From contig NZ_CP070950.1 in assembly GCF_017084525.1 (NCBI RefSeq), positions 3,224,001 through 3,288,000 on the forward strand: a stretch of 64,000 nt of DNA. Direction: 5' to 3'. The position numbers and the translations under genes are program-made. The first letter of the stretch is position 1. Each line of letters opens with the position of its first letter. Origin of the DNA: Conexibacter sp. SYSU D00693 (GTDB lineage: Bacteria > Actinomycetota > Thermoleophilia > Solirubrobacterales > Solirubrobacteraceae). Below are positions 2,361-6,316 of this stretch, one piece after another. The notes under the pieces are model-generated. The model searched no databases. It had not been told where the DNA came from and saw nothing but the letters and a program-made list of their open reading frames with translations.

Positions 2361-3203
2361 ATGGAGAGCGCTCATCCGGCCCTGGCCCACGACTGGCTCG
2401 CCGCCTGCCGGGCCGCGGGGGAGGGGCTCAAGGAGGTCATGCGCCAGCACCCGACCACGGGCGACCGGCTGGTCGAGACGGGCGAGACCGGCGGCGGGGG
2501 CGACCGGACCCTGGTCATCGACCAGCTCGCCGAGGACCACGTCTTCTCCGAGCTCGAGCGCCTCCACGACGCCGGGGCGCGCTTCACGGCGGTCAGCGAG
2601 GAGCGCGGCCGCGTGGACTTCGGCGACGACGGCGTGCTCGTGGTCGTCGACCCGATCGACGGCTCGATGAACGCCAAGCGCGGCCTGACCCACCACGCGC
2701 TGTCCATCGCCGTCGCGGACGGGCCGACGATGGCCGACGTCGCGTTCGCCTACGTCCTGGACCTCGGGCCGGAGGAGGAGTGGACCGCGCGGCGCGGCGC
2801 GGGGGCCTTCCTCGACGGCGTGCGCCTCCACCCGCCGCCCGAGCGCCGCAACGAGGAGGGCAAGCTCGAGCTGGTGGCCGTCGAGTCGGCCGACCCGCGC
2901 TGGCTGGCGCGCAGCTCCGAGGGGCTGCAGCAGGCGACGCACCGGCTGCGCGCGATCGGCGCCATGGCGATCTCGCTGTCGCAGGTCGCCGCCACCCGCG
3001 TCGACGGCATGTGCTCGCTGTGGCGCTGTCGCGCGGTCGACGTCGCCGCCGCGCAGCTCGTTGTCCGCGAGAGCGGCGGCTGCGTGCAGTTCGTCGGCGC
3101 GCCGTCCGCGCTCGACGCGCCGCTGGACCTCGAACCGCACTTCCCCGTCGTCGGCGCGCGGACGCCCGAGGCGCTCGAGCAGCTGGCCGCCGTGGTCGCG
3201 TGA
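2361..3203 (+). CDS. Inositol monophosphatase-family phosphatase
   Basis: Mg-dependent sugar/inositol phosphate phosphatase fold (FBPase/IMPase/CysQ superfamily), 280 residues. It shows the metal-binding EER near residue 80, DPIDGS at about residue 97 (usual form DPIDGT) and the late WRCRAVDVAAAQL segment carrying the third metal Asp. The substrate cannot be read from sequence; myo-inositol-1-phosphate, fructose-1,6-bisphosphate or PAP are all possible. An in-frame ATG at 2352 exists, but it lies next to the -10 box, so 2361 is preferred. The stop overlaps the next gene's GTG start (GTGA), so the two are probably co-translated. Confidence 0.85.
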   Translation: MESAHPALAHDWLAACRAAGEGLKEVMRQHPTTGDRLVETGETGGGGDRTLVIDQLAEDHVFSELERLHDAGARFTAVSEERGRVDFGDDGVLVVVDPIDGSMNAKRGLTHHALSIAVADGPTMADVAFAYVLDLGPEEEWTARRGAGAFLDGVRLHPPPERRNEEGKLELVAVESADPRWLARSSEGLQQATHRLRAIGAMAISLSQVAATRVDGMCSLWRCRAVDVAAAQLVVRESGGCVQFVGAPSALDAPLDLEPHFPVVGARTPEALEQLAAVVA

Positions 3204-4201
3204 TCGACTGGGGGCTCGCCCGCACCGTCGCCCTCACCGCCGCGGGCGGCGACGGCCTGCGCGAGCTGCCCCCGGTCGACCTCGTCGGCGTGGCCGACGA
3301 CGCACTGCCGCGCATCCGCGCCCGCGCGCGGCTCGAGGACGGCGACGTGCCGCCCTTCGAGTGGGTCGGTCGCGCCGCCTGGGTGGACGCGAACCTCGCG
3401 GCCATGGAGGCGGTCCTCGGGCCCGTGCTCGAGGCGGCGCCCCCGCCGCCGGCCGCGGTGCGCGCCGCCGCGGGCGTCGTCCTCGGCGCGGAGGTCGGCG
3501 CGCTGCTCGGCCTGCTCGGCCGCCGCGTCCTGGGCCAGTACGACCTGCGCCTGGACGCCGCGGACCTGACGCCGCCGCGGCTGCTGCTCGTCGGCCCCAA
3601 CCTCCTCGAGGCCGCCGACGGCCTGGAGGTCGATCGTGCCGCGCTGGTGCGCTGGGTCGCCGTCCACGAGCTCACGCACGCCGTGCAGTTCGGCGGCGCG
3701 CCGTGGCTGCGCGGCTGGCTGGCCGAGCGCGTCAGCTCGCTCGTCTCGACCGTCGAGCTCAAGCCCGACCCGCGGGCCCTGCTGCGCCTCGACGTCCTCG
3801 GCCTGGTCGAGCGCGTGCGCGAGCACGGACCGGCGGGGCTGCTGCTGGGGACGACGCGCGGCGCCGCGCTCGACGAGCTGCAGGCGGCGATGAGCCTCGT
3901 CGAGGGCCACGCCGAGTGGGTGATGGACACGGTGGGCGAGGAGCTGCTGGGTGACGTCGGCCCGCTGCGCGACGCCCTGGAGGAGCGCCGCGACGCGCGG
4001 CCGGTCCTGCTGCGCGTCCTCGACTCGCTGCTGGGCTTCGACCTCAAGCTGCGCCAGTACCGTCAGGGTCGCGCGTTCTGCGACGCGGTGGTCGAGCAGG
4101 CCGGCGAGGCCGCCCTCGCGACCGCGTGGAGCGGCCCCGAGGCCCTGCCGCGACCGGCCGAGCTGGCCGACGCGGGCGCCTGGCTCGCGCGCACCGCCTG
4201 A
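3200..4201 (+). CDS. Zinc-dependent metalloprotease-like protein (DUF2342 / F420-associated family)
   Basis: 333-residue protein with the zincin signature HELTH at residues 156-160 and a downstream EGHAEWVMD segment that probably supplies the third ligand. Sequence style and length match the actinobacterial family annotated as 'zinc-dependent metalloprotease' or 'coenzyme F420 biosynthesis associated' (DUF2342). No substrate is known for that family. The GTG start overlaps the TGA of the phosphatase gene, indicating translational coupling. No signal peptide is seen, so it is probably cytoplasmic. Confidence 0.8.
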   Translation: MIDWGLARTVALTAAGGDGLRELPPVDLVGVADDALPRIRARARLEDGDVPPFEWVGRAAWVDANLAAMEAVLGPVLEAAPPPPAAVRAAAGVVLGAEVGALLGLLGRRVLGQYDLRLDAADLTPPRLLLVGPNLLEAADGLEVDRAALVRWVAVHELTHAVQFGGAPWLRGWLAERVSSLVSTVELKPDPRALLRLDVLGLVERVREHGPAGLLLGTTRGAALDELQAAMSLVEGHAEWVMDTVGEELLGDVGPLRDALEERRDARPVLLRVLDSLLGFDLKLRQYRQGRAFCDAVVEQAGEAALATAWSGPEALPRPAELADAGAWLARTA

Positions 4202-4274: not shown

Positions 4275-4302
4275 TTTACAAACATGTGTTCGCTGGTACG
4301 CT
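4275..4302 (+). promoter_or_regulatory. Sigma-70-type promoter of the histone-like gene
   Basis: TTTACA at 4275-4280 and TACGCT at 4297-4302 are separated by 16 nt. The expected transcript has a leader of about 50 nt with a purine-rich GAGGGG at 4340-4345 ahead of ATG 4358. This local stretch is AT-rich compared with its surroundings. Confidence 0.5.
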
Positions 4303-4357
4303 CCTAGTGGACTTAGACGTAACTTGCTTACAAGCGACCGAGGGGACCCCACCCACC

Positions 4358-5080
4358 ATGGCCGACACACCCGCCACCTCCACCACCACCGAGACCGTCG
4401 CCGACACGGCGAAGACCGCGGCGACGAAGACGCCGGCGACCAACCGCCGCAAGGCCGCGGCGACCAAGCGCTCGACGACCGCCAAGAAGGCGACCACGAC
4501 GCGCCGCACGGCCGCCGCGAAGTCGAACACGAAGACCGCCGCCAAGTCCGCCAAGCGCACGACGGCCCGCAAGACCGCCCCGGCTCGAGCGGAGGTCAAG
4601 ACGACCGCCGAGCAGGTCCAGGACGTCGCCACGACCGTCGTCCTCGTGCCGGTCGGCGCCGCCCTGATCGCCCGTGAGCGCGTCGAGGGCGCCGTCGCCG
4701 AGCTCCGCTCGTCCTTCGGCACCCGCGCCTCGGCCGAGAAGGAGATCCAGACCCAGCTGCGCCGCTTCGAGCGCCGCGGCACGACCGCGCGCAACCAGCT
4801 CGAGCGCGACGTCAAGCGCAACCGCACGAAGCTCGAGCGCGAGCTGCGCCAGCGCCGCACCCGCGTCGAGCGCACGATCAAGCAGAACCGCACGAAGGCC
4901 GAGCGCGAGCTCAAGGCGCTGCGCCGCGACGTCGAGAAGCAGGTCCGCGTGTACCGCAAGGACCTCGACGCCCGCGTCGACTTCGTGACCGCCCGCATCG
5001 AGAACCTCGCCCAGACCGGCCTGACCGCCGGCTCGGGCGTCGCGAAGCAGCTCTCCGAGCGCGTCGCGGCCCTCTCGTAG
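4358..5080 (+). CDS. Basic histone-H1-like protein with hendecad coiled coil
   Basis: 240 residues in three parts. Residues 1 to about 80 are a Lys/Ala/Thr tail with AAK/TTAKKA-type repeats, like histone H1 or the tails of actinobacterial HU/HupB. A short apolar stretch (VATTVVLVPVGAALIA) follows. Then comes a run of six consecutive 11-residue units, each beginning with Arg (e.g. RTKLERELRQR, RTRVERTIKQN, RTKAERELKAL). Eleven-residue periodicity is the signature of a hendecad coiled coil. The tail suggests DNA or polyanion binding and the coil suggests a rod. A nucleoid-structuring or envelope-tethering role is inference. It is a monocistronic gene followed by a strong hairpin. Confidence 0.7.
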   Translation: MADTPATSTTTETVADTAKTAATKTPATNRRKAAATKRSTTAKKATTTRRTAAAKSNTKTAAKSAKRTTARKTAPARAEVKTTAEQVQDVATTVVLVPVGAALIARERVEGAVAELRSSFGTRASAEKEIQTQLRRFERRGTTARNQLERDVKRNRTKLERELRQRRTRVERTIKQNRTKAERELKALRRDVEKQVRVYRKDLDARVDFVTARIENLAQTGLTAGSGVAKQLSERVAALS

Positions 5081-5173: not shown

Positions 5174-6316
5174 ATGCCCACCCGTGAGGAAGTCCTCGAG
5201 GCCCTGAAGGCCGTCATCGACCCCGAGCTGCGCCAGGACATCGTGACCCTGGGCATGGTCCGTTCGGTGGAGGTCGGCGCCGACCGCGTCGATGTCGTGG
5301 TGTCGCTCACCACGGCCGGCTGCCCCATCCGCAGCCACTTCCAGACGGCGGTCGTCAACGCCGTCAAGGGCCTGGGCGTCGCCCAGGTGGGCGTGAGCTT
5401 CGACGTCCTGGACGCGAGCGAGAAGCAGGCGCTGCAGCGCAAGCTCGGTCGCGGCCAGCTGCCCGAGGGCGCGCTGGCCCAGGTGCAGCACGTCGTCTGC
5501 GTCGGCTCGGGCAAGGGCGGCGTCGGCAAGTCGACCGTCACGGCCAACCTCGCCACCGCGCTCGCGGCCGAGGGCAAGAAGGTCGGCGTCCTGGACGCCG
5601 ACGTCTGGGGCTACTCGATCCCGCGGATGCTCGGCCTCGGCGGCCAGCGCCCGCCGGTGTCCTCGACGCGCAAGATCATCCCGCTCGAGGCCCACGGCGT
5701 GAAGGTCATGTCCATCGGCTTCTTCGTCGAGGAGGACGCGGCCGTCGTCTGGCGCGGCCCGATGCTCCACAAGGCGCTCACCCAGTTCCTCGAGGACGTC
5801 GACTGGGGCGAGCTCGACGTGCTCCTCGTCGACCTGCCGCCCGGCACCGGCGACGTGTCGATGACGCTGAGCCAGCTGCTGCCCGACGCGCGCTTCCTGC
5901 TCGTCACCACGCCGCAGCCGACCGCCCAGCGCGTCGCGCGCCGGGCCGCCGAGATGGCCCACAAGGTCTCGCTCGAGATCGCGGGCGTCGTCGAGAACAT
6001 GAGCGGCTTCGTCACCCCGTCGGGCGAGCGCTTCCAGATCTTCGGCGAGGGCGGCGGGCAGGAGCTCGCCGACGAGCTCGACGCCCCGCTGCTGGGCAAG
6101 GTCCCGCTGACCATGCCGCTGCGCGAGCAGGCCGACATCGGGACGCCGCTGACGATCCAGGACCCGGACGACCCCGCCGCCCAGGCGCTGCGCCACACGG
6201 CGCGCGGCCTGCTCGCGGCGCTGCCGTTCGACCTGCCGATCCTGGCGATCAGCCAGGTGGAGCCGGTCGCCGCAGGCCCTGCCCCCACGGGCATGAGCCT
6301 GCCGATGGCCGGCTAG
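5174..6316 (+). CDS. mrp: Mrp/ApbC-type iron-sulfur carrier P-loop ATPase
   Basis: 380 residues. The N-terminal 90 residues are a MIP18/DUF59 domain with the GCPI motif. Then follows a deviant Walker A (SGKGGVGKST, around residues 111-120), DADVWGYS, and DLPPGTGD. Family members hold and transfer Fe-S clusters to apo-proteins and hydrolyse ATP. Here the CxxC pair of some homologues is not evident in the C-terminal part. The start is ATG 5174, decided by GGAGGG 4-9 nt upstream. A single-gene unit; its convergent neighbours are an Fe-S ferredoxin and a carbonic anhydrase. Confidence 0.92.
   Translation: MPTREEVLEALKAVIDPELRQDIVTLGMVRSVEVGADRVDVVVSLTTAGCPIRSHFQTAVVNAVKGLGVAQVGVSFDVLDASEKQALQRKLGRGQLPEGALAQVQHVVCVGSGKGGVGKSTVTANLATALAAEGKKVGVLDADVWGYSIPRMLGLGGQRPPVSSTRKIIPLEAHGVKVMSIGFFVEEDAAVVWRGPMLHKALTQFLEDVDWGELDVLLVDLPPGTGDVSMTLSQLLPDARFLLVTTPQPTAQRVARRAAEMAHKVSLEIAGVVENMSGFVTPSGERFQIFGEGGGQELADELDAPLLGKVPLTMPLREQADIGTPLTIQDPDDPAAQALRHTARGLLAALPFDLPILAISQVEPVAAGPAPTGMSLPMAG

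What the first reader, a model, noticed from the sequence alone, without database searches (positions are those of the whole stretch)
4358..5080. Histone-H1-like tail fused to a six-unit hendecad coiled coil
The N-terminal 80 residues are Lys/Thr/Ala-rich like H1 or HupB tails, but the body is not HU. It has six 11-residue units starting with Arg (RTKLERELRQR, RTRVERTIKQN, RTKAERELKAL and relatives). The 11-mer period gives a nearly straight rod. A short apolar segment between suggests partial membrane association. Such a basic rod could bridge DNA and another structure.
Basis: partly seen in the sequence, partly recalled or inferred. Interest (0 to 1): 0.5.

Follow-up and report, generated by a model that had tools for sequence, protein, structure and literature searches.

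The report
SOS-linked DNA-tether rod protein
A whole order of soil bacteria carries an unstudied protein with a DNA-sticky tail, a greasy patch and a straight rod, with a DNA-damage switch next to its gene, so it may tie the chromosome to fat droplets or other surfaces when DNA is damaged.

Summary
ORF 4358-5080 (+) encodes 240 residues: a disordered T/A/K/R-rich tail, a short apolar helix around PVGAAL, and one long helix of 11-residue repeats. Hendecad periodicity is strong (lag-11 z 7.4) and conserved: in 27 of 27 family members (window included) hydrophobicity peaks at 97-100.5 degrees (ideal 98.2; heptads 102.9).

The gene is close to universal in its order (Solirubrobacterales, inferred; profile in 170 of 201 genomes), in conserved gene order; no curated family reaches its cut-off. 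Its core is distantly related to one branch of PF05597-type phasins (pairwise hhalign 78.9%; 0 of 310 controls as high; other branches failed). Tail, apolar helix and coiled coil are the plan of PhaF and MLDS/TadA/HBHA, with the tail at the other end.

New here: a LexA (SOS)-type box in the promoter (57 of 82 upstreams; shuffles at most 1). In this genome such boxes also precede lexA and four genes read as dnaE2, recN, dinB and imuB-like.

Best reading: an SOS-controlled, nucleoid-binding, phasin-like tether, probably to neutral-lipid droplets. LexA control is well supported but untested; the droplet step is inferred.

The parts
4358..5080 (+). gene X: 240-aa basic-tailed, phasin-like hendecad protein
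   Evidence: homologues
4358..4603 (+). disordered T/A/K/R-rich N-terminal tail (residues 1-82; net charge +15 over residues 1-76)
   Evidence: charge; mean pLDDT 45-54 per 10-residue block up to residue 80
4604..4714 (+). apolar helix (residues 83-119), with the family motif AERAVLxPVGAALxARD
   Evidence: helix; G100 of PVG invariant in 27 of 27 rows
4733..4996 (+). hendecad rod, eight in-phase 11-mers (residues 126-213); family consensus [VLA]-E-R-E-[VL]-[RK]-[RKQ]-x-R-T-R
   Evidence: one continuous helix 123-239 in the model
4766..4798 (+). first core hendecad FERRGTTARNQ; E138, R140 and G141 invariant in 27 of 27 rows
4275..4280 (+). putative -35 TTTACA
   Evidence: aligned upstreams; not called by the consensus scan
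4279..4292 (+). LexA/SOS-type box CAAACATGTGTTCG (one mismatch to CGAAC-N4-GTTCG)
4297..4302 (+). putative -10 TACGCT (TATAGT or TACACT in several relatives)
   Evidence: not called by the consensus scan
4313..4322 (+). second conserved upstream element TTAGACGTAA (TTAGNNSTAA), role unknown
3197..4198 (+). syntenic upstream neighbour: PF10103 zincin-like protein (coenzyme F420-associated DUF2342 type)
5174..6313 (+). syntenic downstream neighbour: Mrp/ApbC-type iron-sulfur carrier ATPase

Best explanation
Gene X is a LexA-controlled (DNA-damage-inducible) tether. LexA, bound between the promoter hexamers, holds X low; after DNA damage X is made. The disordered Lys/Arg/Thr/Ala tail binds DNA without sequence preference. 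The long helix of charged 11-mers oligomerises as a straight hendecad coiled coil and sets a spacing. The apolar PVGAAL helix, related to the phasin core, inserts shallowly into a hydrophobic surface, most likely the monolayer of triacylglycerol or wax-ester droplets made by the WS/DGAT enzymes that nearly every genome of the order has. The result would be a nucleoid tied to droplets, and probably compacted, during genotoxic stress, as MLDS does in Rhodococcus. Shown by sequence: tail, apolar helix, hendecad rod, order-wide conservation, LexA-type box, distant relation to one branch of phasins. Inferred: DNA binding, oligomerisation, droplet binding, actual LexA control and the physiological role.
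For: Periodicity at 11/3 residues per turn in 27 of 27 members. Net charge +14 to +44 in 26 of the 27 aligned members, L029 being 0. AlphaFold: disordered tail, helix 83-119, helix 123-239 (core alone). Core against 13 actinobacterial phasins: hhalign 78.9%, score 36.1 over 74 columns; controls 0 of 310, maximum 30.1. Before those 13 were chosen, the A2 profile had itself found a phasin (E 5.2e-5 in its genome) that is over Pfam's PF05597 cut-off. LexA-type box NRAACRNRYGTTCG in 57 of 82 distinct upstreams (shuffle mean 0.025, maximum 1); RAAC-N4-GTTCG in 47 of 61 named X upstreams against 0 of 45 Mrp upstreams, or 52 of 63 within 700 nt of the core against 1 of 58 in a downstream control span. 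In the same genome perfect CGAAC-N4-GTTCG lies before lexA, a dnaE2-type polymerase, a RecN-like gene and two impB/mucB-family polymerases, with 22 sites of CRAACN4GTTCG against 0 for the reversed pattern. WS/DGAT over cut-off in 192 of 201 order genomes and matched in 0 of the 116 sampled class genomes outside the order, where the X profile also finds nothing. MLDS: Lys-rich tail binds DNA, knock-out is UV-sensitive, 'apolipoprotein motif' (passages of PMC5504291); X's best Pfam similarity is also Apolipoprotein, far below cut-off, 6 of 27 members at E <= 0.1.
Against: No curated family reaches its cut-off for the window protein. The phasin link is remote and holds for one subgroup that I picked by eye; two other groups gave 0.3% and 1.5%, all 29 phasins together 19.1%, and the shuffle controls do not correct for that choice. 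WS/DGAT and X are each confined to one order in the class sample, so they may reflect shared ancestry. Within the order the link breaks: G081 has no X at the syntenic site but has WS/DGAT; G164 has a tailed X but no WS/DGAT match; G130, G133, G145 and G159 have WS/DGAT but an X of total charge +11, -5, -4 and -5. The window's own genome has a full PHA synthase match, so PHA granules are not excluded there. The window box has CAAAC, not CGAAC, as do 48 of 63 boxes; 25 of 82 upstreams lack the pattern; no box lies in the 1.5 kb downstream of the zincin gene in G118, G139 or G164. recA was not recognised among the 21 other sites of the genome (not searched for separately). The promoter scan calls no promoter. 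Synteny is with housekeeping genes, not lipid genes.
Confidence: 0.4

Rival explanations
1. A purely nucleoid-associated protein. X is an SOS-induced H1-like architectural protein: the tail coats DNA and the hendecad rod cross-links DNA segments, compacting or protecting the chromosome, with no lipid surface; the apolar helix only extends the oligomer.
For: Basic tail and positively charged rod, LexA-type box of the kind found beside repair genes, and no lipid genes among the neighbours scanned.
Against: Besides FERRG the most conserved part is the apolar PVGAAL helix, which a pure DNA protein does not obviously need, and it lies in the stretch related to phasins. Four genomes keep the box but have a weakly basic or acidic X.
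Confidence: 0.27
2. A constitutive storage-granule protein (phasin), on lipid droplets or PHA granules, whose operator belongs to a different repressor that happens to read a similar palindrome; no SOS role.
For: Phasin-like core; the dominant half-site is CAAAC rather than CGAAC; a second unknown conserved element follows the promoter; the window genome has a PHA synthase match.
Against: The R-N-R-Y spacer and GTTCG half-site match the published Gram-positive LexA consensus (passages of PMC2248561), and a TCGAACGTGTGTTT box at Streptomyces lexA, with the same kind of imperfect half-site, is marked as experimentally validated (passages of PMC9380542). PhaC matches at E <= 1e-40 occur in only 21 of 201 genomes.
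Confidence: 0.15
3. An SOS envelope or division checkpoint: the apolar helix anchors X to the membrane and the charged rod blocks division or ties the nucleoid to the membrane.
For: Borderline membrane segment (window protein 1.79); LexA-type box. That other SOS regulons include small membrane division inhibitors is recalled.
Against: Only 6 of 27 members reach 1.6 in a 19-residue window; no envelope or division gene among the neighbours scanned.
Confidence: 0.1

Closest known systems
PF05597 phasins (actinobacterial members such as L161, L165, L169)
   Same: Apolar helix with a GIGA motif, then a helical segment with RG(T/Q)EAR; several collected members carry a Lys/Ala tail.
   Different: That tail is C-terminal and X's is N-terminal; X has a long hendecad rod and does not reach Pfam's cut-off; 0 of 30 collected upstreams had a LexA-type box (one of the 30, L163, is a wrong frame).
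PhaF of Pseudomonas putida
   Same: Granule-binding amphipathic helix, coiled-coil oligomerisation, H1-like DNA-binding tail (passages of PMC5658603).
   Different: Reverse domain order, leucine zipper instead of hendecads, tied to PHA; 180 of 201 order genomes lack a PhaC_N match at E <= 1e-40, though the window's own genome has one.
MLDS / TadA / HBHA lipid-droplet proteins
   Same: HBHA: short hydrophobic segment, coiled coil with apolipoprotein similarity, Lys-rich tail; MLDS: Lys-rich DNA-binding tail, protects against UV (passages of PMC5504291 and PMC6176652).
   Different: Tail C-terminal; MLDS is regulated by MLDSR, and the word LexA does not occur in that paper; sequence homology to X not tested here.
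AlgP of Pseudomonas aeruginosa
   Same: Helical domain plus H1-like tail that spaces a storage granule, perhaps by tethering it to the chromosome (passages of PMC9239181).
   Different: Polyphosphate granules, C-terminal KPAA tail, no hendecad rod mentioned in the passages read.

Membership tests
PF05597 phasin | score over Pfam's curated cut-off | tested here: not met
   no PF05597 match listed at E <= 1 for the window protein; related NCBIfam PHA_granule_1 in 2 of 27 members, best E 0.0073
PF05597 phasin | profile-level similarity of the core | tested here: inconclusive
   78.9% with one subgroup picked by eye, 0 of 310 controls as high, but 0.3%, 1.5% and 19.1% with other groupings
PF05597 phasin | co-occurrence with PHA synthase | tested here: not met
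   PhaC_N at E <= 1e-40 in 21, over cut-off in 29, of 201 genomes; X profile in 170 of 201; the window genome does have PhaC
MLDS/TadA/HBHA | apolar segment + coiled coil + basic tail, tail C-terminal | tested here: not met
   all three parts present but tail is N-terminal
MLDS/TadA/HBHA | sequence homology to the named proteins | not tested
   no sequence of them was fetched
MLDS/TadA/HBHA | localisation on lipid droplets | not testable with these tools
   -
Histone H1 / HU / HupB | globular H1 or HU domain | tested here: not met
   no such family in Pfam or NCBIfam scans of the window protein
Hendecad coiled coil | 11-residue periodicity, 3.67 residues per turn, conserved register | tested here: met
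   lag-11 z 7.37; mean peak 98.5 degrees; 27 of 27 within 97-100.5
Hendecad coiled coil | oligomerisation through the repeats | not testable with these tools
   -
LexA regulon | CGAACRNRYGTTYC-type box at the promoter | tested here: met
   57 of 82 upstreams with NRAACRNRYGTTCG; half-site in the window is CAAAC
LexA regulon | LexA binding and induction by DNA damage | not testable with these tools
   -

The most novel reading that the evidence does not exclude
A whole bacterial order has an SOS-response arm not known elsewhere: DNA damage induces a reversed-architecture phasin that ties the chromosome to neutral-lipid droplets, making storage organelles part of the DNA-damage response.
Probability: 0.3. 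Interest if true: 0.82.

Novelty: new variant of a known kind. Interest (0 to 1): 0.6.

Why it matters
Granule-to-nucleoid tethers are known singly (PhaF, MLDS, AlgP) and have been studied mainly in storage and starvation. A near-universal, syntenic, LexA-boxed version would link DNA damage directly to storage droplets across an order and offers a gene, a promoter and a box to test. It also gives a strongly hendecad bacterial rod whose units vary in number between species.

Tried and rejected
Homologues outside the order in the single-protein search (L027, L028, L030) were read and rejected: the frames are unrelated or chance, composition-driven matches. Of the five weak phylum hits, L066, L067, L069 and L070 read as unrelated coiled-coil or other proteins and only L068, a phasin, was kept. 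A single-protein scan of genome contigs and one of viral contigs found no relative; PHROGs, the PDB by sequence, Foldseek on the core model and Rfam on the locus gave nothing useful (Foldseek best E 5.8). One weak NCBIfam hit to the Rv3852 family (1 of 27 members, E 0.0056) was not followed. mistakenly read minus-strand loci on the plus strand; corrected.

A PHA-granule role was dropped as the main idea because strong PHA synthase matches are rare in the order, although the window genome has one. The idea that losing WS/DGAT goes with losing the basic tail looked good in one genus (G118, G139, G277: no WS/DGAT match, short X; charge 0 and +1 in the two measured, G139 and G277) but failed in G130, G133, G145, G159 and G164, so it is not used as support. 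The spacing between PVG and FERRG (32, 35, 36, 40, 41, 43, 47, 52) resembles helical turns but was not tested.

Literature searches that found nothing on point: 'LexA SOS phasin' (19 papers, 12 listed; they look incidental, none opened), 'Solirubrobacterales histone coiled-coil' (0), 'hendecad lipid droplet' (2, unrelated by title), 'phasin Thermoleophilia' (6) and 'Solirubrobacter lipid droplet' (2), which share one paper that was opened for passages. Absence from print beyond these searches is not claimed.

Full report
What is there. The ORF at 4358-5080 (+) encodes 240 residues. AlphaFold on the family alignment gives a disordered tail (mean pLDDT 45-54 per 10-residue block up to residue 80), a helix at 83-119 and one long helix at 123-239 (core alone mean pLDDT 86.6). 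The tail of 76 residues has net charge +15 and the core +15.

The repeats. Reading 11 by 11 from the FERRG motif gives units of the form apolar-E-R-x-apolar-K-x-x-R-x-K, residues 126-213. Lag 11 and lag 22 stand out (z 7.37 and 6.30) while lag 7 does not (z -0.03). Across 27 family members, window included, the hydrophobicity spectrum (80-125 degrees) peaks at 98.5 degrees against 98.2 for an ideal hendecad; each single member peaks between 97 and 100.5 degrees. Contiguous units from the FERRG unit onward number 1 to 9 under a strict rule. The pooled consensus is [VLA]-E-R-E-[VL]-[RK]-[RKQ]-x-R-T-R. I infer a coiled coil; oligomer state was not tested.

The family. A single-protein search of 149 genomes of the class gave 30 with a match; three outside the order were chance matches on reading. 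A 27-row core profile (A2) finds X in 170 of 201 genomes of the order, 104 of 112 high-quality ones, 46 of 51 genera; at least one of these, G136, is probably chance (two stops inside, not at the usual site). In the class sample it is found in 30 of 149, all 30 among the 33 order genomes. In the phylum sample it is found in 13 of 296: eight in the order and five weak ones. The 63 named records are mostly Solirubrobacterales, Solirubrobacteraceae or Thermoleophilaceae, with Patulibacter and Paraconexibacter, some labelled only Actinobacteria, Actinomycetota or Bacterium, and one labelled Chlamydiae. In 15 genomes with missing or weak matches, or without WS/DGAT, the upstream zincin gene was located in 13. 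There G130, G133, G145 and G159 hold a diverged X; G139 and G277 a short one, and G118 one further downstream whose start is unclear; G164 an X with a run of N; in G081 Mrp follows directly; in G200, G221, G136 and G281 no X-like frame was seen in the next 1.5 kb.

Gene order. In 64 loci (63 named plus the window) the Mrp/ApbC gene was found in 60, always on the same strand and downstream, and the zincin or inositol-phosphatase genes upstream in 47. These are housekeeping neighbours, so synteny shows vertical inheritance rather than function.

Relation to phasins. No curated family reaches its cut-off for the window protein. Over the 27 members, at E <= 0.1, Pfam Apolipoprotein appears in 6 and NCBIfam PHA_granule_1 in 2, all weak. 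The A2 profile matched a protein in another family of the phylum (E 5.2e-5) that scores above the PF05597 phasin cut-off (37.4 against 28.8). I therefore collected 30 PF05597 hits from the phylum (one, L163, dropped as a wrong frame before aligning). hhalign of A2 with 13 picked by eye as nearest gave 78.9%, E 1.6e-5, score 36.1 over 74 columns; with two other groups of eight (one member, L160, shared with the 13) 0.3% and 1.5%; with all 29 together 19.1%. Controls with A2 columns shuffled (150), reversed and rotated (60) or shuffled in blocks of 11 (100) never reached 36.1; the highest was 30.1, and the plain reversal scored 15.7. These controls do not correct for the choice of the 13. I read this as a remote relation to one branch of phasins. 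Several of the collected phasins have a Lys/Ala tail at the C-terminus, so X looks like the same plan with the tail at the other end. The window genome also has a separate phasin-like protein with a C-terminal tail (L193:1322-1996, PF05597 22.7 bits, below cut-off).

What surface? PHA synthase (PhaC_N) matches at E <= 1e-40 occur in 21 of 201 order genomes, 29 over cut-off, the window's own genome among them. WS/DGAT, the triacylglycerol/wax-ester synthase, is over cut-off in 192 of 201, and in the class sample in 31 of 149, all 31 among the 33 order genomes. Lipid droplets are therefore the likelier surface for the family as a whole. But both traits mark one clade, and the within-order exceptions (G081, G130, G133, G145, G159, G164) show no tight coupling.

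The promoter. Aligning upstream regions shows a pattern close to TTTACA-AACRTGTGTTCG-GTGG-TAYACT before many X genes; the consensus promoter scan does not call it in the window. NRAACRNRYGTTCG is in 57 of 82 distinct upstreams; shuffles average 0.025, maximum 1. Among named loci RAAC-N4-GTTCG is in the 200 nt before X in 47 of 61, before Mrp in 0 of 45, and a looser pattern before other phasins in 0 of 30, the wrong frame L163 counted in. Some starts were placed by rule; within 700 nt of the core match the box is found in 52 of 63, against 1 of 58 in a control span downstream. In the window genome CRAACN4GTTCG occurs at 22 sites, the X box among them, against 0 for the reversed pattern. Of the 21 other sites, five lie before or at the start of lexA (PF01726), a dnaE2-type polymerase (PF07733 with PHP), two impB/mucB-family polymerases (PF00817) and a RecN-like protein, and one lies 74 nt before a dnaB-type helicase gene (the names RecN, dinB, imuB and dnaE2 rest on Pfam plus my reading). 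I did not assign the rest, and recA was not recognised among them. Published consensus: CGAACRnRYGTTYC for Gram-positives (passages of PMC2248561) and tCGAAC-N4-GNNCGa in Streptomyces, with an imperfect box TCGAACGTGTGTTT at lexA marked as validated (passages of PMC9380542). The window copy, CAAACATGTGTTCG, has the same kind of one-base departure in one half-site; so do 48 of 63 boxes. Read on its own in the window it is not significant (6 matches with up to one mismatch, 3.1 expected). Its weight comes from conservation. The four diverged X genes keep the box (G130, G133, G145, G159), and G118, G139 and G164 show none.

Mechanism. MLDS binds DNA through Lys-rich PAKKA motifs, brings DNA to droplets, and its loss makes cells UV-sensitive (passages of PMC5504291). 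PhaF joins PHA granules and nucleoid (passages of PMC5658603), and AlgP spaces polyphosphate granules (passages of PMC9239181). X has the three corresponding parts plus a LexA-type operator. The best-supported account is an SOS-induced nucleoid tether with a phasin-like hydrophobic foot; the foot's target is the least certain step. Confidence 0.4 for the whole chain; taken alone, I judge LexA control at about 0.7 and DNA binding by the tail at about 0.75 (judgement).

Noticed in passing
window 4313-4322 and upstream of X in relatives: A second conserved element TTAGNNSTAA (for example CTTAGAACTAATAAGCTTAG in L009) starts 30-41 nt after the start of the LexA-type box in the 24 upstreams that hold both; TTAGNNCTAA exact in 24 of 82 upstreams, shuffle mean 0.115. 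Binding protein unknown.
   Followed up: partly
L193:1322-1996 (own genome near 4162221): Separate phasin-like protein with a C-terminal AKP-rich tail, the PhaF orientation, next to an epimerase-like frame.
   Followed up: partly
L072: A second X-like copy in genome G041 lies beside an HU gene and has a GAACACATGTTC box 55 nt upstream.
   Followed up: partly
L173 (genome G281): The box CAAACGTGTGTTCG remains after the zincin gene although no X-like frame was seen there.
   Followed up: no
L215:1413-1811: The dinB-like frame behind a perfect LexA-type box is only 132 codons long in the window genome; residues 11-56 match PF00817.
   Followed up: no
L111: A record titled Chlamydiae bacterium (BOG_genome_mining.142) carries an X locus with the usual neighbours; probably a mislabelled or mixed bin.
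   Followed up: no
L213:215-1348 (-): A perfect LexA-type box overlaps the start of an open frame with no Pfam match at E <= 0.001.
   Followed up: no
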